Source: a virus. From it: a stretch of DNA of 61,327 nt. Each line of letters opens with the position of its first letter. Position 1 is the stretch's first letter. The stretch is from positions 1 through 61,327 of IMG/VR virus record IMGVR_UViG_3300009503_000003; one strand, given 5' to 3'. The translations under genes and the position numbers were made by a program. This document shows positions 12,202 to 61,327 of the stretch, in pieces. Under the pieces are notes generated by a model that searched no databases, was not told the DNA's origin, and was given only the letters and a program-made list of their open reading frames with translations.

Positions 12202-12228
12202 TTCTCCTCCCATTCTCTAGTTTTAAAT

Positions 12229-19211: not shown

Positions 19212-19240
19212 TCTTTACTCCACAATTTTTATTTATTATT

Positions 19241-19696: not shown

Positions 19697-19708
19697 AATA
19701 TTTTTCCT

Positions 19709-23285: not shown

Positions 23286-23295
23286 GGTTTCATCC

Positions 23296-26470: not shown

Positions 26471-26471
26471 T

Positions 26472-35946: not shown

Positions 35947-35947
35947 C

Positions 35948-36400
35948 TTATGCCCCTCCAATCATTACCGTGAAAGTATTTTTCCCAATGACTAAAGTCA
36001 TAGCCACTTCTAATGTGCTAGCCTTTTGCTCTATAGTAATATCTTTTATCTCGCTTATAGTATATATAGGAACTTCTGTAGCATCCAGGTGAGCTTTCAT
36101 ATATGTAGTTACTATATTTGTTTCATTATCTTTTATATAATCATTAACAAAATTCATAGCAGAATTAATAAATGAACGAATATATATGAGTAATTCATCA
36201 GAATATCTTTGATTAATTAAATCTAACATTCTAGTAGAATTACTCCCCCCATCAACAAGCGGTATTTGAAAAGGTTTTGTCACTAAACATCTTATGAACC
36301 TATCAACTAGAATTTTGGGATCAGTATAATCCGAAGTAGCTATGTCATTGTCGGATATCCCTATATCAAAAGATTCTGAATTGTAGGTTATGGTTTCCAT
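35948..36400 (-). CDS. gp25-like baseplate wedge protein
   Basis: 150 aa from the ATG at 36400 (ETITYNSESFDIGISDN). Length, central helix-rich region (LVDRFIRCLVTKPFQIPLVD) and C-terminal strands (IEQKASTLEVAMTLVIGKN) fit the gp25/gpW family, and it directly precedes baseplate J. The EPR motif typical of gp25 is not clearly present, so this rests on length and synteny. Confidence 0.65.
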   Translation of the reverse strand: METITYNSESFDIGISDNDIATSDYTDPKILVDRFIRCLVTKPFQIPLVDGGSNSTRMLDLINQRYSDELLIYIRSFINSAMNFVNDYIKDNETNIVTTYMKAHLDATEVPIYTISEIKDITIEQKASTLEVAMTLVIGKNTFTVMIGGA

Positions 36401-41100: not shown

Positions 41101-41574
41101 ATGATTTATAGATAATACAAATTTAGTAATATCCTTTTTCTCTATTGTTATTTTTCCATTACTAATATTATCTATATTTTTTGTAAAATCTTCAATTAAA
41201 TTGTCTTTTAATGTATTTAAAAACTTCTTAATATATTCTTTTTTCTCCGCAGATTTATCTAACACACTTAAAAGCCATGGGAATGATTTATAATTTTCCT
41301 CAATATAAGAAGATAGCAAAGAATAATAATTTTTCACTGGATTATCTATATTATCTTTTAATTTTATTATTTTACTATCTTGACTAATTTCAACCTGTGA
41401 TTGGATACTAAATAAAGTAGAGAATAAAGGAATTACAGAATCGTTTTGGAATTTATATTTATCTATGTTTGTAAAAACTAATGATTCTAAGCTATACGCT
41501 TTTAATAGATTATACACATCTTTAAAATGATAAACATACACTTTGAAATTTAATTTAAATTCCTCTCTAATCAC
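38086..41574 (-). CDS. Baseplate hub-like protein, 1162 aa (GTG start)
   Basis: The start is GTG at 41574, overlapping the previous stop. Very large for a hub. Residues 150-290 (INIDRRSSIYEQ, DIVEIRVKYP, YYRMFIGFISELKIS, YMSLSLQCEGIYKILEL) show the gp27/gpD-type beta-barrel. Residues 395-470 (PLDILREVVINTFCEFFENDQGVL) also fit hub proteins. The C-terminal 600 residues are not recognised. Lies between tape-measure-side genes and the spike, the canonical hub place. Confidence 0.75.
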   Translation of the reverse strand: MIREEFKLNFKVYVYHFKDVYNLLKAYSLESLVFTNIDKYKFQNDSVIPLFSTLFSIQSQVEISQDSKIIKLKDNIDNPVKNYYSLLSSYIEENYKSFPWLLSVLDKSAEKKEYIKKFLNTLKDNLIEDFTKNIDNISNGKITIEKKDITKFVLSINHSNSVEQPSNKATININIDRRSSIYEQIKNELYDKDTNELLISENDIVEIRVKYPKIYDPFPGEYYDDDGYYRMFIGFISELKISKSALEYMSLSLQCEGIYKILELQKAIYTTALGQSQLFEKNTELQDVNVNIFQNKFTRMSAKAIFEDILSSIFLNGSNENINELLEKESTLKIKIPTASNAFSYDIPLKQDIDKVNFQFITYIPLLYILVKFIETRDTTSKLDLSFISAYHDGIDIPPYELAIQEAFRLFYPVLKTPLDILREVVINTFCEFFENDQGVLILRTPKYNQIDLFYDFLEKNNSEIKTDNRITLDKDITDVNSDYIIIPENIISYSYDQKDPSIVTRSDMQFYFPLNGQPLPTYTGHYTDPYLLAKYGMRPVEPMNNPLSINPAIAEALSPLVLANKNKNARIIQIEVINNKPYKLGYLYFIPTDSSYKEPLINSEINTTLEGVEKRIYGYVGYLEQKQSSYAPFKGFTTTLTFTYVRKANIIAKQVKGENFVTKPTYQKYIEFKKLPDTETILNLAFKFNVDKAQGMVEKQTPAEKEKASSITTSEISENGFYIIPNGELSYKYNYKREVLENSSVSSENIEDFLYPFAVRGKFESTVEAFDNTPKNKYFLSYLTILDKLTLETSYEIAFEKYNKFFKPSIENFVKAVIRDYIDANKLKIAEVEKRLKEVTIDFSTIEVNITKLTNIKLKPATVLTNKVFWITVKSNTGDSNFDRIARSFGFIACYPLNKLPKPSYYAIWKEGNSKEEGYILKGFDFQKSIEITNDDFLYNIFIFRTTSSDKVKGYDIQDMLTRRVLYTNKNAIHANYNFANYYKDYSIYSVIKPMDTEFEFYKVIFVIPSEIQFRGTTAEGIQMEESQIEVSKLNIDIPYSGRWFLYEKAPNEIKFTNIERFIEYEDSKYGDTLKEFEENMQNFYSLRRFNSIDNDNSLLLVWNFVYLDKEFEIFKKEVKNLYAFNYATWETGTGKNTDFADVYSGKVLNLNEVRTNEFSL

Positions 41575-45449: not shown

Positions 45450-46079
45450 CTACTTTTTTGTTTTTATGCTCCCAGTACCTTCTACCTTAACCAAAGCCAC
45501 ACTACACTCTATTTCCTGTATCATTAACATATCCCTACCTTCTGCAGCTACAGAAAATCTCAACGGAAAATTTTTAAACCAACAATTGTAAAAATACATG
45601 GACATAGAAGGTAAAGTAATGGTACTGTCTCCTGAAGTAGGAGCATATGCATTAAGTTTAATAGCTATAGGTTTATACTGTGCAAGTATATCAAACCCAT
45701 TGTTATATCCTGCTTCTAATTGAGCTTCAAGAGAAAAGCTATCAGGATAAAATGTATCACTTATTTTTTTTGCATACAATAATATTTTAGACATTTTTAA
45801 AGAATATGACGGTATTCCTGGCACATTCTCTACTCCTACCCAACTAAGATTAGTTGTAGGATCTCCAGCGGCTGCTCTCCATAATTGGGTTTCTCTTGAT
45901 TCTGTTATATCTACTTCTTGCACTGTTCCCACTGGGTTGTAGGTTACAGAATCTCCTGTTGAACTATCCGGGATTACAGGTTCAGGAGTAGTAAAGTCAT
46001 ACTTAGGGCTATAACTTCCTATTTCTAATGAAAAATAAGGTCTTAACCTTGCTAATGTTCGTGGTATCATAAAAGCCAT
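45450..46079 (-). CDS. Tail tube-type protein 1, 209 aa
   Basis: Shine-Dalgarno aggagg. Begins FMIPRTLARLRPYFS. Strand-rich middle (SYSLKMSKILLYAKKI) and TITLPSMSMYFYNCWFKNFP near the end, consistent with a tube-forming beta-barrel. Lies directly after the sheath, as expected for the main tube protein. Confidence 0.8.
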   Translation of the reverse strand: MAFMIPRTLARLRPYFSLEIGSYSPKYDFTTPEPVIPDSSTGDSVTYNPVGTVQEVDITESRETQLWRAAAGDPTTNLSWVGVENVPGIPSYSLKMSKILLYAKKISDTFYPDSFSLEAQLEAGYNNGFDILAQYKPIAIKLNAYAPTSGDSTITLPSMSMYFYNCWFKNFPLRFSVAAEGRDMLMIQEIECSVALVKVEGTGSIKTKK

Positions 46080-46091: not shown

Positions 46092-47303
46092 TTACAAAGA
46101 TACATTAAGTTGAACGTAAATCCAAGTTACATCAGGTACCGGCCTAATACCTATTACTATATTTATTTGTCTTATATCCGCCGGATCAGGAGCAACACTA
46201 ACTATGGTATAATCTAATATAATCTGATTACTTGCCATAGTTTGGAGTAAAGTTCTCAATGATACAGTAATTGCATTTAATGTAACCGCTCCTAAATACT
46301 TGGTATTTATATACAACGATTTTAATGAAGTCCTTAATACTTTCCCCACATAATCAGCTACTTTTATAAATTTTATTTGTGAGATAACGATCTGTGATTG
46401 ATCAGTAGTAAGGTCCATTAAGATTCTATTATTATCCGATGCATCCACTATCAGCACACCACTTTCTGCCATAGTTTTTTTGGTAGAAAGTGGGAAGGGG
46501 TCTACTATAGTATTAAATCCTCTTACAGTTTTTCCTGAAATAGGCATAGCAGGGTCTTCTGTAGGATTACAAGCATTAGCCCCCACTGCGGATGCTATAA
46601 ATTCACCCCCAATATTTTCCATATTGGAACCTATAGCATAAGTTGCTGTTGAAGGGGATACATATGCTATAAAGGGACTCTTTATATATGTAGCTGTATC
46701 TATATATTGCTGATAAGCATTGGCACCGGTATCTGAGCCTGTTTTATTCCCAATTATAGCTATTCTAGGCTTCTGCTCTTCTATACTCCTAGTAAATTCT
46801 ATATGTCCCATTAATGCATCTAAACTTAGTTTATTAAATGTTTTACTCATGGGAAATAATGGGATTATACAATATAAAGGTGAAGCATCCCCAAAAAGCA
46901 ATAATTTATTTAATGCTTGTTCAAATGAAGTTTTTAATCCTGATTCTGTAGTTAAATCTAACGGCTGATTTGTAACTTCATCAGTAGGATTAAGCGCTAA
47001 TGCATAATATTCAGTAATACCATTAGATTTTAATATAGATTCTGCTAGTGAAATACTATTTTTAATTTTAGAACCATTTACTACATCTCCACTTTCTACA
47101 GAATAAGTACCATATATAGCGGCAGCATTATTATTTGCATCTATCGCGCTTAATTGTTTTACTTGGTATATCCCTTCTCCTGTTTTTTCAGTATGCCCTA
47201 TCACTATTGGCATAAAGTATCCGGGCAATCCCGTAGCCTGACTTTCAAATATCTCCTTTACATAAACTCCTGGTTTTACAAAACCTCCTGTGAATGTTGC
47301 CAT
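46092..47303 (-). CDS. Contractile tail sheath protein
   Basis: 403 aa, Shine-Dalgarno aaaggagg. The N-terminus FVKPGVYVKEI...GLPGYFMPIVIGHTEKTGEG is the classic sheath opening. It is followed by variable middle domains and a C-terminal IVIGIRPVPDVTWIYVQLNV strand set that joins neighbouring subunits. This identifies the tail as contractile. Adjacent to the tail terminator and tube genes. Confidence 0.94.
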   Translation of the reverse strand: MATFTGGFVKPGVYVKEIFESQATGLPGYFMPIVIGHTEKTGEGIYQVKQLSAIDANNNAAAIYGTYSVESGDVVNGSKIKNSISLAESILKSNGITEYYALALNPTDEVTNQPLDLTTESGLKTSFEQALNKLLLFGDASPLYCIIPLFPMSKTFNKLSLDALMGHIEFTRSIEEQKPRIAIIGNKTGSDTGANAYQQYIDTATYIKSPFIAYVSPSTATYAIGSNMENIGGEFIASAVGANACNPTEDPAMPISGKTVRGFNTIVDPFPLSTKKTMAESGVLIVDASDNNRILMDLTTDQSQIVISQIKFIKVADYVGKVLRTSLKSLYINTKYLGAVTLNAITVSLRTLLQTMASNQIILDYTIVSVAPDPADIRQINIVIGIRPVPDVTWIYVQLNVSL

Positions 47304-47315: not shown

Positions 47316-47909
47316 TTAAATATAACTTTGCAATGTCAAATTCAATTTTTCGATATAAATTAACGGATCTATTCTATTGTATTGAACTTCTGTGTACACC
47401 TTCATTTGTACACTATTAGCAAAAATTCTCTTACCGGACCAATCTTTTTCAGTTTCACCGGTAATGCTTGCACTATTAAATCCTATTCCATATTTAAATA
47501 AAACATCTGGGAATATGTATCTAATATAAAAAGCAGTTAAATCAGTTAAAGCATTACGATCCTCATCAGTGAAAGTATTAATATCTATGTATAATGTACT
47601 TTCAATGAACCCAAACGCATACTTTTTTGTAACCGCCTCACCATCTACTATATCTATTTTCTCGTCAAATCCACCCTGAATATCACTAATTGCTCTATGA
47701 TATGTAGAACTCTGACTCCTCACCACCAGCAACGGTAACGCCATGGCTGTTGGGGGATAGTAGCCATATATCAATATGTTAGTCGCAGAAGTATCGTCGT
47801 TGTATTTGTATATAGGGAACTCTTCCTGCATTGCGTATATTTGACGCAATGCAGCGACGGTTACCTTTTTAATATAATTTGAACCATGAATGATATACTT
47901 ATTAACCAT
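47316..47909 (-). CDS. Tail terminator / tail completion protein
   Basis: 197 aa. Position directly upstream of the sheath, plus an IDINTFTDEDRNALTDLTAFY helix and VQMKVYTEVQYNRIDPLIYIEKLNL strands, fits tail terminator proteins of contractile phages. An 11-bp hairpin (47826-47854) lies in its N-terminal codons. Confidence 0.7.
   Translation of the reverse strand: MVNKYIIHGSNYIKKVTVAALRQIYAMQEEFPIYKYNDDTSATNILIYGYYPPTAMALPLLVVRSQSSTYHRAISDIQGGFDEKIDIVDGEAVTKKYAFGFIESTLYIDINTFTDEDRNALTDLTAFYIRYIFPDVLFKYGIGFNSASITGETEKDWSGKRIFANSVQMKVYTEVQYNRIDPLIYIEKLNLTLQSYI
47826..47854. repeat. Perfect 11-bp inverted repeat, intragenic
   Basis: Arms ctgcattgcgt and acgcaatgcag around a 7-base loop, in the tail terminator gene. 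Confidence 0.88.
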
Positions 47910-48942
47910 TAGCTGAAACCCCTATATCAATATTACTATCTGTCAGCAAATATCTTACATCTTTTCTTGGAATAGCTTTAGACGTAGCTTCTTGATGCAA
48001 TGGTACTGCGCGCCAAGTCCCATATTTTGGGTCTGTTACCTCAAAATATTCCCCTGTTGCTGGTCTATACAAAACATCATGTTCATGCCATCTTGGACTC
48101 CATAGGGTCCAAGTATTGAATGAAGTTTGGAATTCTATACCTACCGCCCCAAACAATCTAACTCTAGTCGGTAAATTGCCATATCTAGCGATTAAAGGGA
48201 TCCCATGATAATATCCACCTGCTATTCCAGTTCCAAAACATAGATTGCATTGTGAATACCCCTCGTACGTTGGATTAGCATTAGTATCCACTGGGGTTAT
48301 TTTAACCCCTTTATCAGGATCTTCTGTATTAAAACCATAGTAATCATCGCCATCTAAAGAGGTTTTGCTATAATCTTGGATACATTTACACTTCTTCCCT
48401 TCCCAACGGTGAGTATACAATATGAAAGGTTCACCATCGTTTTGGAGCATAGTTACTTCTCTTCTTCTAATCTCCTGAAGAATAAATCGTATATAATTGT
48501 TATCTATAGTTAAATTAGCATATCCCTGTTCCAAAGGGCTATAATTTACATCGAAAGTATTATACGCGGTATCTAATGAAGCAGGATCTTGATTTATCAA
48601 ACTAGAACTGCCATTAGAATCTACCCATTCTACCCAAACATATGGGAAAGCATCATTTGGCAATACTGCAGCTCGGGTATACTCCACTGATGTAGTTGTG
48701 ATTTCAATGTGATCTACTGCCTGAGATAAAATAGGGCAGAATCCAACATGAATTTTGTAAGAGACCGCAGAAGGCACAGAATTCCAAGAAATTAAAAAAG
48801 TATTAATTTTTCCTGGTACCACTTCTATTTTGACCAAAGAAGGTACCCACTCCGCAGTAGGAAACAAAGAACGGATATATTTGAATTCCTCGTCTGCGTT
48901 TAGAGGTTGCCCATACGGATTTGGTCGTATCGTGTATCCCAT
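47902..48942 (-). CDS. Neck-type protein with FN3-like domain and zinc knuckle
   Basis: 346 aa. Residues 35-115 look like an FN3/Ig domain (VVPGKINTFLISWNSVPSAV). Residues 175-240 have CKC and CNLC pairs about 50 residues apart, a probable structural zinc site. The C-terminus (YRPATGEYFEVTDPKYGTW) recalls head-tail connector/neck proteins. It overlaps the tail terminator gene. No clear Shine-Dalgarno. Confidence 0.65.
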   Translation of the reverse strand: MGYTIRPNPYGQPLNADEEFKYIRSLFPTAEWVPSLVKIEVVPGKINTFLISWNSVPSAVSYKIHVGFCPILSQAVDHIEITTTSVEYTRAAVLPNDAFPYVWVEWVDSNGSSSLINQDPASLDTAYNTFDVNYSPLEQGYANLTIDNNYIRFILQEIRRREVTMLQNDGEPFILYTHRWEGKKCKCIQDYSKTSLDGDDYYGFNTEDPDKGVKITPVDTNANPTYEGYSQCNLCFGTGIAGGYYHGIPLIARYGNLPTRVRLFGAVGIEFQTSFNTWTLWSPRWHEHDVLYRPATGEYFEVTDPKYGTWRAVPLHQEATSKAIPRKDVRYLLTDSNIDIGVSANG

Positions 48943-48943
48943 T

Positions 48944-49681
48944 TTAATTTGGATTTTTATACTCCACTATTGGAAGCAATTCCTGACCCCAACAAGATTC
49001 CTGAATTCCTTCCCAATCTACAACATATTGATTATTAACTCTGCTAATTATAATTCCCTCTTTCAAAGAACTAAATTTTCTTACTTTTGTGCCTATCTCT
49101 AATTCCTCGGAATAATCTATAACATAGGGGTCATACTCCTCTTTTTTAGCTTCTTTTTTAGGAATATAATCTTTTATGTCCATGCCATTCAAAATCTTTT
49201 TTAATACTGAGGTAGCTTCTATCCTTTCTTTAGGAAGCTCTTGTTTATACTCAGAAATATTCTCATACGGGCATTTGGTATTGCTATCTTTAAAAACTAC
49301 AAAACCGCAATGTTTGCATAATTCAATATCTTTAGTAACTTCTTTTTTTGATAAATTTAAAGAAGCTATTTTTAAAGTGTATATTACCGGGTTATGATAA
49401 TATTTAACATCTATATACCCTAATTCTTTATTAGTCGCATTTACAACCTTCGCAGGAATATTTTCAACGTCTATAATGTCCTCTTCATTTATATCAGTTG
49501 TCATTATAGGCGTTATGTCATTTATACCTGCCGAAATGACATTAGTCATTTCGTGGGTATTGACATCATTTAAAGGGATCATATATAACTCATCCGCTTT
49601 ATTATCATTCCAACCTATAATAATCATTGCTCGGTTATCGTTAGGTATCGATACCACTTGCCCAACTTTAAAATTTATCAT
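48944..49681 (-). CDS. Hypothetical protein with KOW-like ends and zinc cysteines, 245 aa
   Basis: Shine-Dalgarno ggaggcgg. The N-terminal (FKVGQVVSIPNDNRAMIII) and C-terminal (LEIGTKVRKFSSLKEGIIIS) segments are both small SH3/KOW-type barrels. The middle has CKHCG plus a later CP, a possible zinc knuckle. Probably a virion structural or neck-associated protein by location. Function unknown. Confidence 0.65.
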   Translation of the reverse strand: MINFKVGQVVSIPNDNRAMIIIGWNDNKADELYMIPLNDVNTHEMTNVISAGINDITPIMTTDINEEDIIDVENIPAKVVNATNKELGYIDVKYYHNPVIYTLKIASLNLSKKEVTKDIELCKHCGFVVFKDSNTKCPYENISEYKQELPKERIEATSVLKKILNGMDIKDYIPKKEAKKEEYDPYVIDYSEELEIGTKVRKFSSLKEGIIISRVNNQYVVDWEGIQESCWGQELLPIVEYKNPN

Positions 49682-51069
49682 AATTCCGCCTCCAATAGTA
49701 ATTTAGAAATGTTTTTTTCGTACTCTTCCAATATATTTATCCCTCTATGCTTAGGTTTACCTAAATAAGTAGGACCTGCAGGTGGGGTATATATAGCTTC
49801 TAATTCTTTTTGTTCTAATCCTTGTATAACTTTATAATCAGTTTTATATTTCTCTACTTTATTTTTAAAATCTTCTAATACATTTTTAGCTTCTTCTGGC
49901 GTTTTTGCAGCATAAAAATTTTCTCGTGTTTCATACATTAAATCTGAAATCCAAGTAATAAATAATGCCCTAACTCTACCTAACTTTTCAGGGGCATCTT
50001 CCTTTATTGGGATAGACATTAGTCTTGCTACTTCTTTTTGTTGTGTTTTATCCACAAAAACTTGCTCTAATCTAGCAAATTCTTCCTTTTTATTCTCCAC
50101 TATCTGTTCCTTAGTTCTATCCCTTGTAGTTCCTGGGGCGTATAAAACAGAAATAGCGGTATACATACTAGCTAATCCCGCTGTTGTAGTGAAAAGACTT
50201 TCATAATATTCTAATGATCTTTTCACTACCGGTAATCTTTTTATAAATGTAGGATCCCCTATTTTTGATTTTAAATTACCGTATATATACAAAGCTATTA
50301 ATTGATGTATGCTATATGCCTCTTGCGCATTTTTAGCTACAAGTATATCAGTATCTTGAATATTATTCTTTAACATATTTACAACTATCGGTTGCTTATC
50401 TATAAAATAACTTTTTACACTATTAGGATCGGAAAAATTTAACCCTCTAAAAGTTTCATCCTTATAATCCTCTAAAGTTTTAATTAAAGGTTGCAATATT
50501 TCTCTGGAATTTTGAATTATTTCTATTATGGTATTTTGAATCTCATCATGATAATATGTCAACATTATAGTAGAATATATCTTATTTAAAATACTTCTAA
50601 TATTTGGAACTTTATTAGGGATTAATCTACTTATTCTATGTGAAATATCTTCTTTTAAAGTATTTTTATATCCTTCTAAATTATTTTCTTTCTTCTTCCC
50701 TATTTGTTTAACCCCTTCAGCAATCCAGTCATATACTATCAATTCTTTTGCTTTATCATAATAATCTTTCTTTTTCTCTATCATCTTTTTACTAAAATCT
50801 TCCGAGATAATTTCTTTTACCGTAGGCTCTACCAGGTCTTCTTTTATTCGATTATTAATATTCTCTTGCAATACTGTAGATTCTTGCGGTGTAATTTTTG
50901 GGAAACTGGTGGATAACTTCATAATGTCTATATCAAAATAATGCTGGCTAACCAAATAAGTATATTTTAAAAAAGTATCGTACGTTATTCTTGCAATGAC
51001 ATCTTCTTTTCCGGTACCAGGATACGCACTTTTAACTACAGTCTCTATATATGCATCAAATTCTGCCAT
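49678..51069 (-). CDS. Hypothetical all-helical protein, 463 aa
   Basis: Overlaps the preceding gene by 4 bases. Long helices throughout (DFSKKMIEKKKDYYDKAKEL, FKNKVEKYKTDYKVIQGLEQ). It has neither the mixed fold of a major capsid protein nor the portal clip/stem pattern. It could be a scaffold-like or internal virion protein. No family recognised. Confidence 0.68.
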   Translation of the reverse strand: MAEFDAYIETVVKSAYPGTGKEDVIARITYDTFLKYTYLVSQHYFDIDIMKLSTSFPKITPQESTVLQENINNRIKEDLVEPTVKEIISEDFSKKMIEKKKDYYDKAKELIVYDWIAEGVKQIGKKKENNLEGYKNTLKEDISHRISRLIPNKVPNIRSILNKIYSTIMLTYYHDEIQNTIIEIIQNSREILQPLIKTLEDYKDETFRGLNFSDPNSVKSYFIDKQPIVVNMLKNNIQDTDILVAKNAQEAYSIHQLIALYIYGNLKSKIGDPTFIKRLPVVKRSLEYYESLFTTTAGLASMYTAISVLYAPGTTRDRTKEQIVENKKEEFARLEQVFVDKTQQKEVARLMSIPIKEDAPEKLGRVRALFITWISDLMYETRENFYAAKTPEEAKNVLEDFKNKVEKYKTDYKVIQGLEQKELEAIYTPPAGPTYLGKPKHRGINILEEYEKNISKLLLEAEL

Positions 51070-51075
51070 GTTTTT

Positions 51076-51501
51076 TTAACCCCTGTGCATTAAAAATCCA
51101 TTTTTAAATTTTATTAAAGTATATTTTCCTTCCATATCCTCCTCCAAAATTTCAAATGAAATTTTGGAGGAGGAGAATTCATTAAGTTTAAAAGAATACT
51201 CTCCTTTTTTAGTCACTTTCCCCGCTCCATATGTACCCTCAGGTATTTCCCCCTCGAAGGAGGCATAAGCTAATGGATGATCCTCTGTAGGAATTGCTAA
51301 TATCTTTTCTCCCTTTTTAGGTAATTTTTTAGTTACAAAAGACTTTAATACCCCTTTATACGGGATTCTCCAATCGTAATGGTTCCCCGCCCTTTTGGCT
51401 TCATGTTGCTGGATAACTAATTTAGAGACTTTAGATCCATCTCCCTTTGGTTCAGGAGTTTTGGTCCAATCTCGTTTTTCTTTATATTCCTCTAATTCCA
51501 T
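51076..51501 (-). CDS. Stand-alone LigD-type 3'-phosphoesterase
   Basis: 141 aa, Shine-Dalgarno aagggg. It covers the LigD PE domain: LVIQQHEAKRAGNHYDWR (H33, H41, D43, R45), VLKSF, EDHPLAYASFEG (H75, Y79) and IPEGTYGAG. In bacterial NHEJ ligases this domain removes 3'-phosphates and 3'-terminal ribonucleotides; free-standing versions exist in some bacteria and archaea. All catalytic residues appear present; relative to LigD there is a two-residue insertion between the first two histidines. No ligase domain or Ku gene is seen. Its C-terminal codons hold the longest hairpin in the window. Confidence 0.92.
   Translation of the reverse strand: MELEEYKEKRDWTKTPEPKGDGSKVSKLVIQQHEAKRAGNHYDWRIPYKGVLKSFVTKKLPKKGEKILAIPTEDHPLAYASFEGEIPEGTYGAGKVTKKGEYSFKLNEFSSSKISFEILEEDMEGKYTLIKFKNGFLMHRG
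51137..51174. repeat. Perfect 18-bp inverted repeat, intragenic
   Basis: Arms at 51137-51154 and 51157-51174 (tcctcctccaaaatttca and its complement) around a 2-base loop, within the LigD-type phosphoesterase gene. The longest perfect hairpin found here. Confidence 0.95.
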
Positions 51502-52805
51502 TATTCCCCTTCAATTGTCGCAATAGGGTAATTATAGTCTTCCAGTGACACTTTTTTATTAATTAATCCCGTATTAACATCTATCGAATCTATAGCTGGA
51601 ACCACTTTAATATTATCGTCTATATCCATATGTTTAAAATCTTTCAATACTTCTTTTAAATTCGATAATAGTTCTTCATTAACTTGTTTATCAAATAGTA
51701 AATATAATATAACCCCTTTATCCCCCTCTATACTTAACTTAAAATCTATTACATATGGAGATAATGCGCATATCAAATCTGCTAATGAATTTTTAAACTC
51801 TCCAAAAAATCTAGGCCCCCTCCTAATTCTCAATGGTTGATAGCATCTATTATTTGGTATTATATTGTATACCCCTCTTAATCTATCCATATTTATATCA
51901 TTAATATCTTCTATTGCCATACGATATAAAGAACCATACACATCAAAAACTCCGATAATTTTAGGATCTTCAAAATAAGAATATATCATGGGAAAATTAT
52001 CTTTATAATATTTAGATATCTTTTCTATAGATAATCCATTCGGATAATATTTATTAACTAGTTTAGAAGGGCCTTTGCAGGCTTTTTTAAATATATATGG
52101 GAAATATTTAAGCTTATTCATATAATCTTCAAATCTCAAAAATTTATTATTGCTATCGCATATAATCTCTGCTTCGCTATCTTTTATGCTATACACTGTG
52201 CCTAATTCCCCTAAATATTTACCATGCAATATTAAAACGCTATCCCCTTCTTGAATATAATTAGCTGATAATTTATTAGCTAATCTCAATATCTTTGAAT
52301 CCCAAAGATATTGGGAATTATATTTTTCAAATTCCTCATAAGTTACATTTATCCCATATAAATTTTTTAATCTATTAATTATTGCTATATAATCTGATTC
52401 ATTTAAATATGGAGTATCCAACATTTTAATATGCTCTTCAATGCCAGGTAAAATAGTAGTTATCGGAGTTTTTATTACAGATACAGGAATATCATTTTTT
52501 AATCTATCATATACTTTATTCCAATCATTAAACTCTATAGCTCTATCATCAATATAAAATCTGGCAAATGGTTTCTCCATAATAGGAATATTTAATCCCC
52601 TTGAATTTAACCAAACTTCCATATTCATTTTTTCTTTAGGATCTGCAGCGCGGTGTGAATGAATATATATTTTCCACCCTTCTTCAGTTAATTTTTTAAT
52701 AGTTTCACAGGCATAAGGAATTTCTTCGCCTATTTTACCATTTTCTTCCTCTTTGGCAATAACATTATCAAAATCAATAGCTATTATTTTTTCTGCATCA
52801 TTCAT
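51501..52805 (-). CDS. HAD-superfamily phosphatase fused to a large unknown region
   Basis: 434 aa from the ATG at 52805 (NDAEKIIAIDFDNVIAKEE), six bases after ggag. HAD motif 1 is DFDNV (D11, D13), motif 2 lies at IHSHRA (about 49-54), and the DD of motif 4 at FYIDDRAIEF. This small HAD is of the phosphatase type; related phage enzymes include DNA 3'-phosphatases. The other 300 residues, including a KOW-like EGDSVLILHGKYLGELGTVY stretch, are unrecognised. Stop and next ATG share bases with the phosphoesterase gene, hinting at joint action. Confidence 0.78.
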   Translation of the reverse strand: MNDAEKIIAIDFDNVIAKEEENGKIGEEIPYACETIKKLTEEGWKIYIHSHRAADPKEKMNMEVWLNSRGLNIPIMEKPFARFYIDDRAIEFNDWNKVYDRLKNDIPVSVIKTPITTILPGIEEHIKMLDTPYLNESDYIAIINRLKNLYGINVTYEEFEKYNSQYLWDSKILRLANKLSANYIQEGDSVLILHGKYLGELGTVYSIKDSEAEIICDSNNKFLRFEDYMNKLKYFPYIFKKACKGPSKLVNKYYPNGLSIEKISKYYKDNFPMIYSYFEDPKIIGVFDVYGSLYRMAIEDINDINMDRLRGVYNIIPNNRCYQPLRIRRGPRFFGEFKNSLADLICALSPYVIDFKLSIEGDKGVILYLLFDKQVNEELLSNLKEVLKDFKHMDIDDNIKVVPAIDSIDVNTGLINKKVSLEDYNYPIATIEGE

Positions 52806-54465
52806 TCTTTTCTCCGATTTTAGAATACTCTTTTCCTGCATCATCTGTTATTTTCTCAGGAGGTTCTTCGCCCTCCCCTAATTCAATAACTTTAGTTGCA
52901 TTATCAGAAGAAACATACACCACTTTTTTAGCATTTAATTTTGTCAACCCTGGCGTAATATTAACTAAATTAGTACCTATCAAAAAAGTTTCTAAACTAT
53001 CGAATAAAGTATAATCTTTTATATCCTTCGCCCATTCTCTAAATTCAGCATATTTTACAGGTAATTCCCTAAAAGTTTGCAAGAAAGAGCTTAAATACCA
53101 ATTAAAAGGATTCTTTTGTATTGTAAGCATACTAACTTTTTGCTGCTCCTTTTCATTAACTTTCTTCATCTCTTCAAAAGTAGGTTCTCCTGTAATTATT
53201 AAATCATTTTCATTAACAAAATCTAATGAATCGTCTGATAACCAATATACATATATCCTGGCCTCGCTAGGGGTATCCTCTATAACATTTAATATAACCC
53301 CTTCTTTTAAAGGATTTTTTATATGCTTTACTTTTAAATACGGGCGCATATCCGACGCTATTAGTAATCTAGGAGAAAATTTAAACTTTATATATTGTTT
53401 AATTTCTTTTTTTATATTATTATCAGAATAAATCTCCTTTTCAAATTCTTTATATGCTTCTTTTTTAATTGTAGATTTATTATATCCCTTAGCATATAAG
53501 GCATCAACTAAATTAATAATACTTTTATTACTATTATTAATATTAATAATATTATCCACTGGCTCAAATAAAATATTTAAATAAGCATCCAATAACCTGT
53601 AGTATGCACTATTCTTTACAAAAAAAGGAAGATATTTATATATAGTTGCATTTCTTGTCAATTCTCTGTTAATCTTAAACAGTTTGCATAATTTCATAAA
53701 CTTAAATAACTCATCTTTATCTATCCAAGAAAATTTGCTTTCTGTAGCCCAATCTGGCCGTAAATCTCCTTCCTTAGCTTTTGAATAATTGCTATCGCTA
53801 TAATCGGAAGGTGGTTCTGAAGAACCTCTCATGTCTGAGTACCACCCTGTGGAAGGATAAGGATATTTATTTTTTTCTCTTACAGGCATGCTACTTTCAC
53901 CATCCGGTTTTGGTTTATCTAAAGATTGGCCTAATTTGTCATAATAATCCTCAGTATCTGTTCTCTTATCTTTATAATTGAAATCAGATTGGTCTACCGG
54001 AATTTGATCTTCTATATAACTTTTTATTGCTAAATCTTTAAAATTAACTATATAATCCACAATTATATCTTTCAATTCCGGCTCAGGAATTTCTTCTGCA
54101 TTTTCAATTTCAAAAGACATATCAGGATACTCTTTAAACGTAATGTAATATTTTATAACAGAGTTTTCATTAGTAGTATCAACTTCTTGAGTAATATCTA
54201 TATCGTAAATTTTGTCATTCACAGTAATTTGATACGCCTGTGCTTTCTTATTTAAAGTAGAGAAAACTTCTTTTAATTTTGTATAATAATTAGGATGCTC
54301 TTCTAAATGGTCTAATGCTATTTCCTTAGCTATTTCTGGATCATCGGTATGTTCCATTTCTTCTTTAATACCCATTTCTAACTCGTGAGGGTCGACAGTT
54401 TCTTCTCTATTTAAATTTTTGTCTAGGTATTCGCTTATTTTTTTAAACAAAAATTTTAAATTCAT
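52798..54465 (-). CDS. Large protein with DUF5661-like N-terminus, 555 aa
   Basis: Shine-Dalgarno ggaggggg. Residues 23-62 (DPHELEMGIKEEMEHTDDPE, ending in HPNYYTKLKEV) match the DUF5661 motif seen in phage-encoded proteins. A disordered segment (about 175-250, Pro/Ser/Asp rich) follows, then a helical region and a KOW-like piece (NPLKEGVILNVIEDTPSEAR). Probably an internal or head-tail virion protein; function unknown. Confidence 0.72.
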   Translation of the reverse strand: MNLKFLFKKISEYLDKNLNREETVDPHELEMGIKEEMEHTDDPEIAKEIALDHLEEHPNYYTKLKEVFSTLNKKAQAYQITVNDKIYDIDITQEVDTTNENSVIKYYITFKEYPDMSFEIENAEEIPEPELKDIIVDYIVNFKDLAIKSYIEDQIPVDQSDFNYKDKRTDTEDYYDKLGQSLDKPKPDGESSMPVREKNKYPYPSTGWYSDMRGSSEPPSDYSDSNYSKAKEGDLRPDWATESKFSWIDKDELFKFMKLCKLFKINRELTRNATIYKYLPFFVKNSAYYRLLDAYLNILFEPVDNIININNSNKSIINLVDALYAKGYNKSTIKKEAYKEFEKEIYSDNNIKKEIKQYIKFKFSPRLLIASDMRPYLKVKHIKNPLKEGVILNVIEDTPSEARIYVYWLSDDSLDFVNENDLIITGEPTFEEMKKVNEKEQQKVSMLTIQKNPFNWYLSSFLQTFRELPVKYAEFREWAKDIKDYTLFDSLETFLIGTNLVNITPGLTKLNAKKVVYVSSDNATKVIELGEGEEPPEKITDDAGKEYSKIGEKNE

Positions 54466-55901
54466 TGACCCCCTCCTAATCCTTCTATCTTTTTCTGCAA
54501 ATTATCTATATCTGAATAGATTATATTTTTCAGATTATACTCTTTATCTAATGGTTTACCTAACTGCTCAAAAAATAATTCTAATCCTGCCAAATTGTCT
54601 TCTACTTCTTTTTTTATATCGTTCATTTTTTCTAAGTAATATTGCCTATGATATTGTAAAACTTCTTTTTTAGCTTTTGATATTGCAGATTCTATTGTAT
54701 TCAAAGAAGTAATATTATCGCTTATACTTTGTAAAATAGTAAATAACTTAAATAATGTATCACTCTTCTCTGTATAAGGTTTTATCTTATCTATTAAATC
54801 ATAAATTGAACCACTACTAGTTATATTTTTAATTAGAGAATAGCTACTATTTATAAATTCACTTTCAAATGTTGTAAATTGTTCTTTTTCTTTCTTTTCT
54901 TTTTCTTCTTCTTTAAATTTTTCTGCCTTTTCTTTCTCTTCTTTTTCTTTTTGTTTTTTTAGTTCTTCCCCTTTTTCTGCCTTCTCCTTCTCTTTTATTA
55001 CTTTTTCCTGCTCTTCCCTTTTTTTTGTTTGAACTTCTTTTAAATCTTTTTTATATTCTTTTATGTTATTATAAAAATTAACAAAATCTTCAAAAGTTGT
55101 AATAGTTGTTGGCCACCCTTCTAAAGGTACTAAATTAACTTCCAATGATATATCTATTTCCCCATTATTTACTAAAGATATTATATCCTTTATTTTCTGT
55201 ATACTATTAAAAAAATGACGTATATTTTTTGGAGTAATATCCAATATTTTTATAGTTACATCTATCCCTTGCTCAGATAATTCTGTAGATATTATTTTTA
55301 TAAAAGAAGTAGCTATAATTTTATTTATTCTTGCCCATATCCCCGGGATAGAAATAATCGTGCCATATAATTTTTCAGGAGACATTTTTAAATAACTTAT
55401 TCCTACAGGGGCCGTATTAAACCAACTAGCTACCTCTTTTATATCTATTGTGATATTAAATTCCTTTTCAATCCCATCTATTACTTGAAATACCATATCT
55501 TCTTTTTTCAAAATATTCTGCATCTGAGTTAAATAATTATTTATAAACCCTGTATCTTCTAATAAAAGAGATACCACGTCTTGTAAATTGGTTATTTCTT
55601 CCAGACTCCTAGCCCCTATTTTGAATTTCTCATTTAACATTCCCAATAATATTGTTTCTATGCTCACAGATTCAGGACGTATCCCGAATTGTTTTTCTAT
55701 CGCAGATTTTGTGGCATCTAATACTTTTTTTATATTATTTAATTGGGTATTTCCTTTAAATTTTTGCAGTACAACTTCAGCATTCATATTAGGAATTGTA
55801 ATTAAACCTTCATCTACACCTAATAACTGTGCAAACTCAGTACGCTTAGTTAAAAAAAGGTCATATAAATCTGATATATTTTGACTTTCTTTTAAAAACA
55901 T
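54462..55901 (-). CDS. Coiled-coil protein with Lys/Glu-rich centre, 479 aa
   Basis: Shine-Dalgarno gaggg. Residues about 285-345 are a highly charged single helix (VIKEKEKAEKGEELKKQKEK), with helical domains on both sides. Such rods occur in scaffold, tape-like and internal virion proteins. Preceded by a GC-rich hairpin at 55915-55940. No family recognised. Confidence 0.7.
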   Translation of the reverse strand: MFLKESQNISDLYDLFLTKRTEFAQLLGVDEGLITIPNMNAEVVLQKFKGNTQLNNIKKVLDATKSAIEKQFGIRPESVSIETILLGMLNEKFKIGARSLEEITNLQDVVSLLLEDTGFINNYLTQMQNILKKEDMVFQVIDGIEKEFNITIDIKEVASWFNTAPVGISYLKMSPEKLYGTIISIPGIWARINKIIATSFIKIISTELSEQGIDVTIKILDITPKNIRHFFNSIQKIKDIISLVNNGEIDISLEVNLVPLEGWPTTITTFEDFVNFYNNIKEYKKDLKEVQTKKREEQEKVIKEKEKAEKGEELKKQKEKEEKEKAEKFKEEEKEKKEKEQFTTFESEFINSSYSLIKNITSSGSIYDLIDKIKPYTEKSDTLFKLFTILQSISDNITSLNTIESAISKAKKEVLQYHRQYYLEKMNDIKKEVEDNLAGLELFFEQLGKPLDKEYNLKNIIYSDIDNLQKKIEGLGGGQ

Positions 55902-55914
55902 TTGGAACCCTCTT

Positions 55915-55940
55915 CCCCGCCCCGGTTATCCGGGGCGGGG
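55915..55940 (-). terminator. GC-rich hairpin, possible terminator or processing site
   Basis: Arms ccccgccccgg and ccggggcgggg (11 bp) with loop ttat, in the gap between two operon genes. No T run follows on the minus strand, so it may slow transcription or guide RNA processing rather than end the transcript. Confidence 0.6.
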
Positions 55941-55949
55941 GGAAATTAA

Positions 55950-57386
55950 TTAAGAAAAAAGGAATCTACTAATCTTTTCCAAAATATTTTTATCTTCTGG
56001 TTCTTCTTCTGAACCTTTCTCTTTGCCAAATGGAAATTCACCTTTTTCTTTACCTTTGCCAAAAGGAAATCCGCCCTTCTCTTTCTTCTCATCACCAGCT
56101 CCAAAAGGGCCTTTAGATTCCCCTTTTTCACCTGGTTCTTTTTTGGAACCTGATTCTTCTTTAAAATCATACTGTTCCATCCAATCAGCAAATTTATCCG
56201 TTAATCCTTTCAATGCCCCTTTAAATTCACCTTTAAACTTCTCTTTATCAAACCCCTTCTCAGTCATATATTTATCTTTTAATTCTTTTAACAATGTAAA
56301 TATAGTTTTTTTGCTATCTGCAGCAGTAACTATAAGGGTATTAACATCTCTTGCAAGTATCAATCCTGCATATATAGGGGCTATTGGGGTATCAAATATA
56401 TTTTTCCCTAAGGCCAAAGCTATCGTTTCCATATTCTTTATAGAAGAATCTATTGCGCCTACCATAGCCTCTTTATACATATAAGGATCTTGCTTTTTAT
56501 AAAACTTTATATTAAATTGCTTCATCATTTTTGGGACCTGTTCATAATCTGAGAACGGTTTATCTGCATCTTTAAGTTTATCGGCAGATACTCCCGGTTC
56601 AGGATTTATCTTTTTAAATGCCCCTTTATCCCCTTCTTCTTTAAATTCATTACCACTCTCTGTAGAGACCTTCAATTCAGCAGAAGGAAATGAAGCTTGA
56701 GATTTTTCAATATTTATTTTCTCCTCTGGACCTTTTGATATTGTAGGCTTATCTGTCTTAAGATAAGGTTGTTTAACACTAGGGTCATGTTTATCCTGCG
56801 AGGTAGGAAAATCCAATTTCCCTTTTTCACCTTCTTGAATATTATCTATTTTAGCCATCTTAACACCTGCCTCCTTTTTCTCTGGGACATCATATCCTTT
56901 TTCTCTGGCTTGACTGTAAGCAATAGCTGCCGCCTGCTCCTGATCATATCCCTCTTCTATTAAAAGTTTAATTTTGTTGGATATAAATTCTTGGGCTTCA
57001 TCTGTTAATTTTGCAGCTTTTTTCTCAGGTATATCATATCCTCTAGCTTTAACTTCTGAAAGCGCTTTTTCCATAGCTTGTTCTTTTGAATAACCTTCTT
57101 TAACTAATTTATCCACCATAGCTGAAACATATTCTTTAACTTTATCTTCCCCTCTGCTAGCGGAATGAAACATTTCATCGGTATTGGCTTTGGGAAATTT
57201 TAATTCTCCTTTTTCTCCTTTTGTGATGTTTTCTTCTCCTATTTTATCTACAGGAAGACTTTCTTTTATAGAATAATCCTTCTGCACATTATCAAGCTTT
57301 TCAGTAACTCCTTTTGATATATACTTCTCTTTATTTATTTTTTCTTTATAGCCTAAAAAAGCTTTTCTATCAAATATTATTTCCAT
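55950..57386 (-). CDS. Lys/Glu-rich protein with duplicated helical motif, 478 aa
   Basis: Shine-Dalgarno aaaggagg. Two copies of a 35-residue unit lie near residues 85-125 and 130-170 (LVKEGYSKEQAMEKALSEVK / LIEEGYDQEQAAAIAYSQAR, each ending GYD-IPEKK or GYD-VPEKK). The phrase GEKG-x-L-x-FP also recurs (about 57, 182). This EGY-x-x-EQA motif is widespread in phage proteins. The C-terminus is low complexity (GEFPFGKEKGSEEEPEDK). Possibly a scaffold or internal protein. Confidence 0.7.
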   Translation of the reverse strand: MEIIFDRKAFLGYKEKINKEKYISKGVTEKLDNVQKDYSIKESLPVDKIGEENITKGEKGELKFPKANTDEMFHSASRGEDKVKEYVSAMVDKLVKEGYSKEQAMEKALSEVKARGYDIPEKKAAKLTDEAQEFISNKIKLLIEEGYDQEQAAAIAYSQAREKGYDVPEKKEAGVKMAKIDNIQEGEKGKLDFPTSQDKHDPSVKQPYLKTDKPTISKGPEEKINIEKSQASFPSAELKVSTESGNEFKEEGDKGAFKKINPEPGVSADKLKDADKPFSDYEQVPKMMKQFNIKFYKKQDPYMYKEAMVGAIDSSIKNMETIALALGKNIFDTPIAPIYAGLILARDVNTLIVTAADSKKTIFTLLKELKDKYMTEKGFDKEKFKGEFKGALKGLTDKFADWMEQYDFKEESGSKKEPGEKGESKGPFGAGDEKKEKGGFPFGKGKEKGEFPFGKEKGSEEEPEDKNILEKISRFLFS

Positions 57387-57398
57387 TTTATTCCTCCT

Positions 57399-57818
57399 TT
57401 AAACTCTAGGGCCTTCAACATTCCGCCCGTTTATAACTGCATTAGTATCTATTCCACCGGTCATGTATTCCCAATCAATTTCTCTTAAAGAATTCCTTTG
57501 TACTTTATCAAATTTCTTTTCAACTACTTGAATTTTACCTAATCTTCTAATTATAGGTTCGGAAACAGTAGGTATTGGCTGATATTGTAACGCTTTTGCA
57601 GGTATTATTCCTGTTGGAAATATCTCTTTTAAAAACTTCAATAATCTATGAAGTTGATATTTAGTGGAAAATCCTGCCTTGATTTCGTTGATGTAAGTTA
57701 TATAATGCCTTGGAGGCATTCCGGCATAGCTTAAATAATGGTCATACAAACCTTCGTCAAATGTAACCACTAAATTATCTATGGGAACTTGCTCCGTATT
57801 TGTGGATATCTTTGCCAT
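57399..57818 (-). CDS. Hypothetical neck-type protein, 139 aa
   Basis: Short basic protein with a helical core (YQLHRLLKFLKEIFPTG) and an extended C-terminus (GIDTNAVINGRNVEGPRV). Between two structural-type genes; likely a virion component. No family recognised. Confidence 0.68.
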   Translation of the reverse strand: MAKISTNTEQVPIDNLVVTFDEGLYDHYLSYAGMPPRHYITYINEIKAGFSTKYQLHRLLKFLKEIFPTGIIPAKALQYQPIPTVSEPIIRRLGKIQVVEKKFDKVQRNSLREIDWEYMTGGIDTNAVINGRNVEGPRV

Positions 57819-57820
57819 TA

Positions 57821-58585
57821 TTATCTACCTAATGCGCCTATCAAATCAAAAACATTCATTATTGATCTTCCTAAGTTATTACCTATACCTATAGGTAATG
57901 GTACCGAGCCTACACCTGCTCCAGTATACGCATAATCTAATTTAGACACTTCAATAATCTCTTTATACTTAGTATTAATTTTATCTATCAATTGATTTAT
58001 CTTTTCTCCTCTATTTAATGTTAATGATATCCCATTATCATTAATTGATACATCTCCAAACGATATTTTAAGCATATTTGTATATGCCCCAAATACAGCC
58101 CCTCCTAGCAAAATTACCGGCTCTAAAGAAGCTGGTAATGAGAATAGGGTAAAATCTGTGGCTGGAGGTATTATATTATACGCTTTTAACCCTTGCTCTA
58201 AATACTGCCTTAATTCTTCATCTGTTAAAGTGTTGCTAATGAAAGAGGAAAGGATATTGGCCAAATTAAAAGTCAACTTCCTTTCTCTTGGAGTTAATTC
58301 TTTATACGTTAATATGTAATCAGTTGAAGTATCCAAAGAAGTGCTATAATACGATACCACATAAAATAAATTATCTTTCATGGTAATAGAATGAAATTGG
58401 TCAGTATATGAAGTTACAGGAGTATTATTACCATCTTTTGAATCAATTGTAGTTAATAAAGTATAATTCTGCCCTTCATTAGAAGAATAATAAATATTTA
58501 TTTTATCATAAACAGATAAATCTAATCCTTGTGGCATTACCCATTTTATTACTGGAAACAAAAAAATATTTTGTTCTATTGGCAT
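57821..58585 (-). CDS. Hypothetical structural protein, 254 aa
   Basis: The first 95 residues are FN3-like (VIKWVMPQGLDLSVYDKI, YYVS-type strands). The remainder begins KELTPRERKLTFNLANILSS and runs through GGAVFGAYTNMLKISFGDVS. It resembles neck or connector proteins in composition, not in any motif I can name. Stop/start junction with the primase gene is one base. Confidence 0.65.
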   Translation of the reverse strand: MPIEQNIFLFPVIKWVMPQGLDLSVYDKINIYYSSNEGQNYTLLTTIDSKDGNNTPVTSYTDQFHSITMKDNLFYVVSYYSTSLDTSTDYILTYKELTPRERKLTFNLANILSSFISNTLTDEELRQYLEQGLKAYNIIPPATDFTLFSLPASLEPVILLGGAVFGAYTNMLKISFGDVSINDNGISLTLNRGEKINQLIDKINTKYKEIIEVSKLDYAYTGAGVGSVPLPIGIGNNLGRSIMNVFDLIGALGR

Positions 58586-61150
58586 TTACGCTTTTCCTAT
58601 ATTTACAAACTGTTGTTTCAAAAAATTTCTAAATTTTTCAATTAATCTAGATACCGTAATTCTCTCATATTTTGAAAAAGTATCAATTTTATTTCTTATT
58701 TTTGAAATCGTTTCCTCATAAGGTAAATATCCTTCAGTAGTTATCCAAAGATTAAAAGCCGCTTCATTTCTTTCTTTAGTATCTTCAATATTTTTTACCA
58801 TATCCATGTACTTGCTAACTGTATCTTTGTTTAAATGTTCCCTGGCTATATCATACGCCTCTTTTGCCACAAAAGCTAAGGAGTATAAAGGATAAATCTT
58901 ATACCCCTTATTATATATCCCCCTTATTGTCAATTGTTTTTTATTTGAATTTACCCACATGGACTTCTTTTCTACTGGTTCTTCTTCCCTATTTTCATTT
59001 TTTATTTCATATTCTTCTGGTAATGGCAAATTATATTGTCGTAATAAATCAAAATATTTTTCTTTATATTCTTTATCCCTTAAAATACTTTGTATTATAC
59101 CCTCATGAATTTCCTTAACATCTTTTCCTTGTTCTATTAAGAATTTAGCAAAATAATAAGAATCATCCGAACTTTGGGCTACTCCTTGTAGTATAATTTC
59201 AGGTATTTCTTTTATATCTTTCCCTTGATCTATTAATAAGTCAGCAAAATAATAAGAATTCCTTGAACTTTGGGCTATTCCTTGTATTATAATTTCAGGT
59301 ATTTCTTTTATATCTTTCCCTTGATCTATTAAGAACTCAGCAAAATAATAAGAATATACTGAATCTTGTGCTATTCCTTGTAGTATAATTTCAGGTATTT
59401 CTTTTATATCTTTTCCTTTTTCTATTAATAATTTAGCAAAATCATAAGAACTTATCGAATTTTGAGCTATTCCTTGTATTATTATTTCAGGTATTTCTTT
59501 TATATCTTTTCTTTTTTCTATTAATAATTTAGCATATTCAAAAGAATTTCCTGAATTTTTTGCTATTTCTTCTATTAATGTATTCTTATCTAAACTAACC
59601 CCTAAATTTATTAATTCATCTGCTACTTTAATAGCATACAAAGGAAATTTTAAAAATATCTGTTCTATAGCTTTTTTTTCATCATCAGTTAATTTTTCTC
59701 CACTTCTATTTAATAATTTTATAAAAGATATAGTATCTTCTAAATCATCCTCATCTATATCCCTACCAGTTCTTTTATTCTTTTCTAACACAACAGTTAC
59801 CCAATCTTTTCTATACTCTTGATATTCTGGTCTATATCCCTTAGCTACAGATAACAAATAATCTAATGATGCTGATGAGCTTTCTCCTATCTTATTTTGT
59901 ATTTTTTGTATTAATTCTTTTGATAAATTTGTTTTTTCATATGGTCTTCTTATTAAAAATTTAGCTATCAATGTTAAAAATTCAGGTTTATCTATTCGTT
60001 CTCTATCTCCTCTTTCAATTGCATACTTCATTTTTATTACTTTTTCTAATAATGATTGCATGTTTATATTATCTTTAAATTTATCAGAATAAGTAAATAT
60101 TAATTCCCAATCTTTACTATTAGGAATTCTTCCTGAATTAATTGTTGATATTATATTATTTATACGTGATTTCATCTCTTCTTTCCATTCTTGTGTATAC
60201 ACCTTTTTTATTTCTTCTTTACTTTTACCTTCTAATCCTTTTATAAATGAAGACATTACATATAATGTATCTATAATTCTATTTATATATTCAGGATCTT
60301 TATTTAAAGTATTTATTTCCCCAATTATCTGAGGTAATAATGTAGCCTGTAGAATCCAAAGATTGAATGTGAAACTCTTTTTAAAAAAATTAATATTATA
60401 ATCTTCTTTATCTAAACTTTTTAATTCTTTTGATACTAATCCTGTAGTAGCATTTAAAGAATATGGAGATCTTATAGATCCTAACTTATGTAATGTGGAT
60501 AAATCTATACGCATATTATCAGATTCTTTTGTAAATCCTAATGTTGTTTTAGGATATTCAGGTATAATATTAGATTCTATTAATTCTTTTAAAGTATTTT
60601 TTATCTTATTAACATCTTGTTCCTTATTTAAAAATCCTATAACATACATTCCTCTTCCCCCAGTATAATTAATAACAACATCAGAAGTATTTGATATATT
60701 TTTTAAACATAAATTTTTAATTTTTTCAGCAATTTCATACACAGTTTCAAAAGGAAACTTTTCTTTAGGATCTAAATCTATCCAATAAATACGAGAATAT
60801 TGAGTTGGTAATACTATATGAAATTCTACTGTTCTACCATTATTTATAACATTCCATGATTTTAATAATTCTTCGTTTTTCAATCTTTTTACTATTAAAG
60901 TATTATCTATCTTTATTTTCAAAAGGCAATCCAATTTATATTCTTCATATAATTTTAATAAGTTATCTTTTACCCTTTCATAATAATCATAAATATCTTG
61001 CTCCGTTAATCCTTTAGTATAATATTCATTAGGAGATATTATTACAGTACCTGGATGTTTTAATGTTTTAATCGATTCTTTTACCCACATGGACTTCTTT
61101 TCTACTGGTTCTTCTTCCATATTTTCATCTTTTGTATTATCCCCCCACAT
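58586..61150 (-). CDS. Archaeo-eukaryotic-type primase/polymerase with tandem repeats, 854 aa
   Basis: Residues 100-260 carry the AEP signature: IDLDP (D125, D127), TGGRGMYV (163-170), and MRIDLSTL (D216) followed by RSPYSLNATTGLV. The nearest relatives in pattern are archaeal PriS and LigD PolDom. The usual motif-II histidine is tyrosine (Y169). Residues about 535-690 are five 32-residue repeats (FAKLLIEKGKDIKEIPEIIL), probably an alpha-solenoid. The segment EEEPVEKKSMWV appears near the N-terminus and again near residue 720, from 38-bp direct repeats. There is no Shine-Dalgarno: the IS right end lies 15 bases upstream and may have displaced it. It could prime replication or act in end joining. 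Confidence 0.8.
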   Translation of the reverse strand: MWGDNTKDENMEEEPVEKKSMWVKESIKTLKHPGTVIISPNEYYTKGLTEQDIYDYYERVKDNLLKLYEEYKLDCLLKIKIDNTLIVKRLKNEELLKSWNVINNGRTVEFHIVLPTQYSRIYWIDLDPKEKFPFETVYEIAEKIKNLCLKNISNTSDVVINYTGGRGMYVIGFLNKEQDVNKIKNTLKELIESNIIPEYPKTTLGFTKESDNMRIDLSTLHKLGSIRSPYSLNATTGLVSKELKSLDKEDYNINFFKKSFTFNLWILQATLLPQIIGEINTLNKDPEYINRIIDTLYVMSSFIKGLEGKSKEEIKKVYTQEWKEEMKSRINNIISTINSGRIPNSKDWELIFTYSDKFKDNINMQSLLEKVIKMKYAIERGDRERIDKPEFLTLIAKFLIRRPYEKTNLSKELIQKIQNKIGESSSASLDYLLSVAKGYRPEYQEYRKDWVTVVLEKNKRTGRDIDEDDLEDTISFIKLLNRSGEKLTDDEKKAIEQIFLKFPLYAIKVADELINLGVSLDKNTLIEEIAKNSGNSFEYAKLLIEKRKDIKEIPEIIIQGIAQNSISSYDFAKLLIEKGKDIKEIPEIILQGIAQDSVYSYYFAEFLIDQGKDIKEIPEIIIQGIAQSSRNSYYFADLLIDQGKDIKEIPEIILQGVAQSSDDSYYFAKFLIEQGKDVKEIHEGIIQSILRDKEYKEKYFDLLRQYNLPLPEEYEIKNENREEEPVEKKSMWVNSNKKQLTIRGIYNKGYKIYPLYSLAFVAKEAYDIAREHLNKDTVSKYMDMVKNIEDTKERNEAAFNLWITTEGYLPYEETISKIRNKIDTFSKYERITVSRLIEKFRNFLKQQFVNIGKA
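58908..58932 (-). promoter_or_regulatory. Recurrent TTGACAATAA / TATATAATA motif, copy D
   Basis: Inside the C-terminal part of the primase gene, 18 bases past the internal direct repeat. On the minus strand: TTGACAATAAGGGGG, then ATATATAATA. The reading frame (LTIRGIYN) differs from copies A and B. Confidence 0.4.
58951..58988. repeat. 38-bp direct repeat, distal copy
   Basis: Identical to 61081-61118 over 38 bases, continuing about 10 more with one mismatch. Both copies encode EEEPVEKKSMWV in the same frame. The distance between copies is 2130 bp, exactly 710 codons, so recombination between them would leave an in-frame short gene. Confidence 0.93.
61081..61118. repeat. 38-bp direct repeat, proximal copy
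   Basis: Partner of 58951-58988, near the N-terminus of the primase gene. Flanks the primase and solenoid segments together with the distal copy. Confidence 0.93.
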
Positions 61151-61165
61151 TGATTTATGCTTAAA

Positions 61166-61230
61166 GTCATCTACCCACGGCTAAAGCCGAGGGCTTGTCT
61201 GTTTTGTTTAAGGAGTTCAGACGGGTCGGA
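61166..61230 (-). ncRNA. Putative omega RNA (3' part) of the tnpB element
   Basis: By analogy with characterised TnpB systems, the guide RNA overlaps the 3' end of tnpB and ends at the right end, with the guide copied from the flank. The scaffold would include the hairpin at positions 15-40 (catcttgaag / cttcaagatg) and that at 61174-61193. The guide would then be the roughly 16-20 bases from 61165 down, which reach the primase start codon. No direct evidence of transcription. Confidence 0.45.
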
Positions 61231-61327
61231 ACGACTCGGCGACCCATCTTGAAGTGAAAACTTCAAGATGTTTTTAGCTCCATTTAAATCTGCGTTTAAT
61301 CTTCTTCCACAAGTATTACATATTAAT
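61171..61327 (-). CDS. tnpB: TnpB C-terminal fragment (joins 1-1041)
   Basis: The 3' end of tnpB, truncated at the window edge. It repeats the 97 overlapping bases and adds the last 19 codons (SDPSELLKQNRQALGFSRG) and the TAG stop. See the main entry for domains. The frame joins without shift at 61231/1. Confidence 0.92.
   Translation of the reverse strand, partial: LICNTCGRRLNADLNGAKNILKFSLQDGSPSRSDPSELLKQNRQALGFSRG
61231..61327. repeat. Terminal direct repeat, copy 2 (circular overlap)
   Basis: Identical to 1-97. See copy 1. Confidence 0.93.

What the first reader, a model, noticed from the sequence alone, without database searches (positions are those of the whole stretch)
47316..61327. 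Complete contractile tail but no recognisable head genes
Sheath, tubes, chaperone, tape measure, hub, spike, wedge, fibres and lysis-type genes are all present in canonical order. Yet no terminase large subunit (Walker A plus nuclease), portal, major capsid protein, prohead protease or DNA polymerase is visible. Head genes normally lie just upstream of the neck genes, which here is precisely the tnpB element and contig joint. Options: a tail-only mobile element, which would be a new kind of satellite or injection-system plasmid that also carries replication genes; loss of the head block by an IS event; a hidden second contig; or extremely divergent head proteins.
Basis: partly seen in the sequence, partly recalled or inferred. 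Interest (0 to 1): 0.88.

Follow-up and report, generated by a model that had tools for sequence, protein, structure and literature searches.

The report
Phage fragment falsely closed into circle
The virus looked as if it had a tail but no head because the assembly closed a 61-kb piece of a larger phage genome into a circle at a repeated transposon gene; an 89.8-kb contig of the same phage carries the usual head genes just beyond that joint, so this is ordinary.

Summary
The cause is the contig, not the phage. The window has a 97-nt direct terminal repeat lying in tnpB. All 61,327 nt match a gap-free internal stretch (27,205-88,531; 3 mismatches) of an 89,780-nt IMG/VR contig, 3300005573_000075. 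That contig has three tnpB copies. Copies 2 and 3 are in direct orientation and share 149 identical nt that cover the 97-nt repeat, so the window was closed across two different tnpB copies. Immediately upstream of copy 2 the longer contig encodes, on the tail-gene strand, TerL, portal (split by a mini-intein), prohead protease and major capsid protein. Two relatives (TerL, portal and MCP about 38-44% identical) carry the same head genes followed by homologues of the window's neck genes, with no tnpB between; one continues into sheath, tube and baseplate. Tail-only satellite, injection-system plasmid and divergent-head readings are rejected. A real 61-kb circle from recombination between the tnpB copies is not excluded without reads, but is unlikely. 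Ordinary, incompletely assembled myophage.

The parts
1..97 (.). Left copy of the 97-nt direct terminal repeat, inside the 3' part of tnpB (derives from tnpB copy 3 of the longer contig)
61231..61327 (.). Right copy of the 97-nt direct terminal repeat (derives from tnpB copy 2 of the longer contig)
1..1041 (-). tnpB (IS605-type OrfB / TnpB), 5' part from copy 3; when the ends are joined it becomes a copy 3/copy 2 chimera
   Evidence: PF07282 8.9e-22
58586..61150 (-). LigD-like primase-polymerase domain protein with 96-nt repeats; first gene downstream of the joint
   Evidence: (PF21686 1.8e-8)
57821..58585 (-). Structural/neck-side protein; homologue lies shortly downstream of the capsid genes in two relatives
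   Evidence: 37%, 1e-42
57399..57818 (-). Neck-side protein conserved at the same place in two relatives
47902..48942 (-). Neck-side protein conserved in two relatives
47316..47909 (-). Neck/tail-terminator-like protein, directly before the sheath; homologue in G003
   Evidence: role inferred from position
46092..47303 (-). Tail sheath protein
45450..46079 (-). Tail tube-like protein (homologues follow the sheath in G003)
   Evidence: no profile hit
38086..41574 (-). Large tail/baseplate hub-like protein
   Evidence: G003, 3e-32; no profile hit
34462..35961 (-). Baseplate wedge, Baseplate_J
29840..30310 (-). Tail collar-domain protein

Best explanation
The window is a 61-kb internal fragment of a larger, ordinary contractile-tailed phage genome of at least 89.8 kb. 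The phage carries three tnpB copies. Two of them, in direct orientation on either side of this fragment, share 149 identical nt. A short-read assembler could not carry its path through that stretch and closed the fragment on itself, leaving a 97-nt terminal repeat that looks like a complete circular genome. TerL, portal, prohead protease and major capsid protein sit immediately upstream of tnpB copy 2, on the same strand as the tail genes. Shown: the containment, the tnpB copies, the shared 149 nt, the head genes and the head-to-tail continuity in relatives. Inferred: that the closure happened in the assembler rather than in a molecule, and that 97 reflects the assembler's k-mer length.
For: 97-nt direct terminal repeat at 1-97 / 61231-61327. 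The whole window aligns without gaps to 27205-88531 of IMGVR_UViG_3300005573_000075 with 3 mismatches. Three tnpB copies there (5506-6606, 26264-27361, 87491-88591, all + strand); copies 2 and 3 share 149 exact nt covering the terminal repeat. Head genes upstream of copy 2, all + like the tail genes: TerL (PHROG 5.9e-8; 86% aligned to Thermus phage TMA TerL at 5e-31; Walker A WGKGSGKD), portal (PHROG 1e-32; phage G portal 6e-26), head maturation protease (4e-23), major head protein (3e-30; PF25209). In G002 and G003, homologues run TerL, portal, protease, MCP, then the window's neck-side proteins on the same strand with no tnpB in the 0.7-1.1 kb gap; G003 goes on to sheath, tube, hub and baseplate J. 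CheckV's authors report false-positive terminal-repeat genomes and terminal repeats equal to assembler k-mer lengths (PMC8116208).
Against: No reads are available, so the joint cannot be tested by read pairs in the window's own sample. The longer contig is itself an assembly, and 149 shared nt could in principle have been mis-joined there; the relatives' synteny argues against that. The two relatives are close to each other (their portals are nearly identical), so they count as little more than one independent witness.
Confidence: 0.94

Rival explanations
1. A real 61.2-kb circle exists in part of the population, made by homologous recombination between tnpB copies 2 and 3, leaving the head block behind.
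For: Copies 2 and 3 are direct repeats about 92% identical over 1.1 kb with 149 identical nt, and the window's joined tnpB is a copy 3/copy 2 chimera. A recombinant would look the same in sequence.
Confidence: 0.05
2. A tail-only mobile element, satellite or injection-system plasmid.
For: The absence of head genes within the window and its terminal repeat.
Against: A 99.995% identical contig continues into a full head block; relatives have head and tail as one block.
Confidence: 0.01
3. Extremely divergent head proteins hidden among the window's unassigned proteins.
For: Many proteins at 47-61 kb have no profile match.
Against: The head proteins are elsewhere and are detectable by ordinary profiles.
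Confidence: 0.005

Closest known systems
IMGVR_UViG_3300005573_000075 (89,780 nt)
   Same: Same phage: contains the whole window at 99.995% identity.
   Different: Longer; crosses tnpB copies 2 and 3 and includes the head block; itself probably incomplete.
IMGVR_UViG_3300001531_000060 (G002) and 3300032007_000095 (G003)
   Same: Same order of TerL, portal, protease, MCP and neck genes; G003 also sheath, tube and baseplate.
   Different: About 27-50% protein identity; no tnpB and no DNA ligase or primase gene found at the head-neck boundary; no intein in the portal.
Bacillus phage G; Thermus phages phiYS40 and TMA
   Same: Closest deposited phages by portal and sheath (phage G) and by TerL (Thermus phages); large tailed phages.
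   Different: Only 24-29% identity, so distant relatives by these proteins.
False-positive terminal-repeat viral contigs (CheckV paper, PMC8116208)
   Same: A terminal repeat taken as proof of a closed genome while the contig is a fragment.

Membership tests
Contractile-tailed phage (Caudoviricetes, myovirus morphology) | Tail sheath and baseplate wedge | tested here: met
   Sheath and Baseplate_J
Contractile-tailed phage (Caudoviricetes, myovirus morphology) | TerL, portal, major capsid protein, prohead protease | tested here: met
   Not in the window, but in the longer contig of the same phage at 11.2-23.5 kb; capsid fold itself not modelled
Tail-only element / phage satellite / contractile injection system plasmid | No head or packaging genes on the replicon | tested here: not met
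   Head block adjacent on the same strand
Complete circular genome (terminal-repeat contig) | Terminal repeat found only at the closing point, and no longer assembly that continues past it | tested here: not met
   The 97 nt occur at two separate places in the longer contig (27205 and 88435), and sequence continues on both sides
IS605-type tnpB element | TnpB/OrfB domain with zinc-binding C-terminus | tested here: met
   PF07282 8.9e-22; mobility not tested, no tnpA noticed among the ORFs read

The most novel reading that the evidence does not exclude
tnpB copies act as recombination points in this phage, so that a minority of genomes really split into a tail-and-replication circle and a head-block remainder, a kind of segmented phage.
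Probability: 0.02. Interest if true: 0.7.

Novelty: not a real feature. Interest (0 to 1): 0.08.

Why it matters
It removes an apparently headless phage from consideration. It also gives a clean example of how a repeated tnpB gene can make a viral fragment pass as a closed genome, in a way that a count of the repeat within the contig cannot reveal. Gene-absence claims from terminal-repeat contigs whose joint lies in a transposon gene need a second assembly.

Tried and rejected
Searched the unassigned proteins of 47-61 kb and 1-8 kb for head families with PHROGs and Pfam at loose thresholds: only chance-level hits. Sought capsid relatives in bacterial and archaeal genomes to find a host: none. 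Rfam on the window: nothing. Structure prediction was not used, because the head genes were found by sequence.

Full report
Observation. The window carries a long block of genes on the minus strand (8.4-61.2 kb) and a short divergent block (1.2-8.4 kb). A tail sheath, a Baseplate_J wedge protein and a tail-collar protein are recognised by profiles. Tube, tape measure, hub and spike are not recognised by profiles; for the tube and the large hub-like protein, homologues in matching positions in a relative support the assignment. No TerL, portal, capsid or prohead protease was found among the proteins scanned at 47.3-61.2 kb and 1.2-8.4 kb. So the absence within the window is real as far as sequence profiles can tell.

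The ends. Positions 1-97 and 61231-61327 are identical, the signature normally taken to mean a closed circle. The repeat lies in tnpB (PF07282). The window is an IMG/VR virus record.

The longer contig. The sheath is found at 100% identity in IMGVR_UViG_3300005573_000075, 89,780 nt. Aligned in full, the whole window corresponds without gaps to 27205-88531 of that contig, reversed, with three mismatches. The 97-nt sequence occurs there twice, at 27205 and 88435, in two different tnpB copies; a third copy lies at 5506-6606. Copies 2 and 3 are direct repeats, about 92% identical, with one exact stretch of 149 nt that contains the 97. Joining the window's ends gives a tnpB whose 5' part is copy 3 and whose end is copy 2.

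The head genes. Upstream of tnpB copy 2, on the same strand as the tail genes, the longer contig encodes TerL (11197-12936), portal (16571-18814), head maturation protease (19206-20468), a coiled-coil-like protein that may be a scaffold (20476-21735, role inferred), a small protein that may be a capsid decoration protein (21756-22301, role inferred), the major capsid protein (22460-23488) and a DNA ligase (25026-26108). TerL aligns over 86% of its length to the TerL of Thermus phage TMA; the portal and sheath have phage G as their best deposited match.

Independent check on continuity. Because the longer contig also has to cross the 149-nt repeat, its order alone is not proof. Two relatives, with capsid proteins 43-44% identical, were read in full. 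In both, homologues of TerL, portal, protease, capsid and the window's neck-side proteins (57821-58585, 57399-57818, 47902-48942) follow one another on one strand with no tnpB between head and neck genes; G003 continues into sheath, tube, the hub-like protein and baseplate J. The two relatives are close to each other, so they are little more than one independent witness. Head and tail are nevertheless one block in this phage group, and tnpB copy 2 sits at its head-neck boundary in the present phage.

Interpretation. The simplest account is false closure by a short-read assembler at the tnpB repeat. [quoted passage not shown] the present repeat would escape such a filter because the window holds what looks like a single tnpB. 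That 97 is the k-mer length here is inference. A real deletion circle made by recombination between tnpB copies would give the same sequence and is not excluded, but nothing requires it.

Limits. No reads were available. The 89.8-kb contig shows no DNA polymerase among the proteins examined and is probably incomplete. Host unknown: no capsid relative in the genome collection.

Noticed in passing
L004:16571-18814 (longer contig): The portal gene holds a mini-intein of about 174 aa (starting at a Cys and ending His-Asn before Ser), absent from the portals of two relatives; Pfam Hint/intein hits are weak.
   Followed up: partly
window 58586-61150, 51076-51501; L005:5026-6108: The three domains of LigD (primase-polymerase PF21686, 3'-phosphoesterase PF13298, ATP-dependent ligase PF01068) occur as three separate genes of one phage, spread through the head-neck region.
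   Followed up: no
window 4764-5054: Two tnpB-end hairpins (CCCACGGCTAAAGCCGTGGG) without tnpB flank a 73-aa SEC-C motif ORF (4821-5042): a small element or a passenger between stray ends.
   Followed up: no
window 59066-59577: 96-nt in-frame tandem repeats, about 5 copies, inside the primase-like protein.
   Followed up: no
L004:3618-4994; L004:2842-3375: The longer contig also encodes a divergent Cpn60-like protein (PF00118 1.9e-9) and a Macro-domain protein.
   Followed up: no
window 24630-25835: Thymidylate kinase fused to an inorganic pyrophosphatase domain (PF02223 and PF18823).
   Followed up: no
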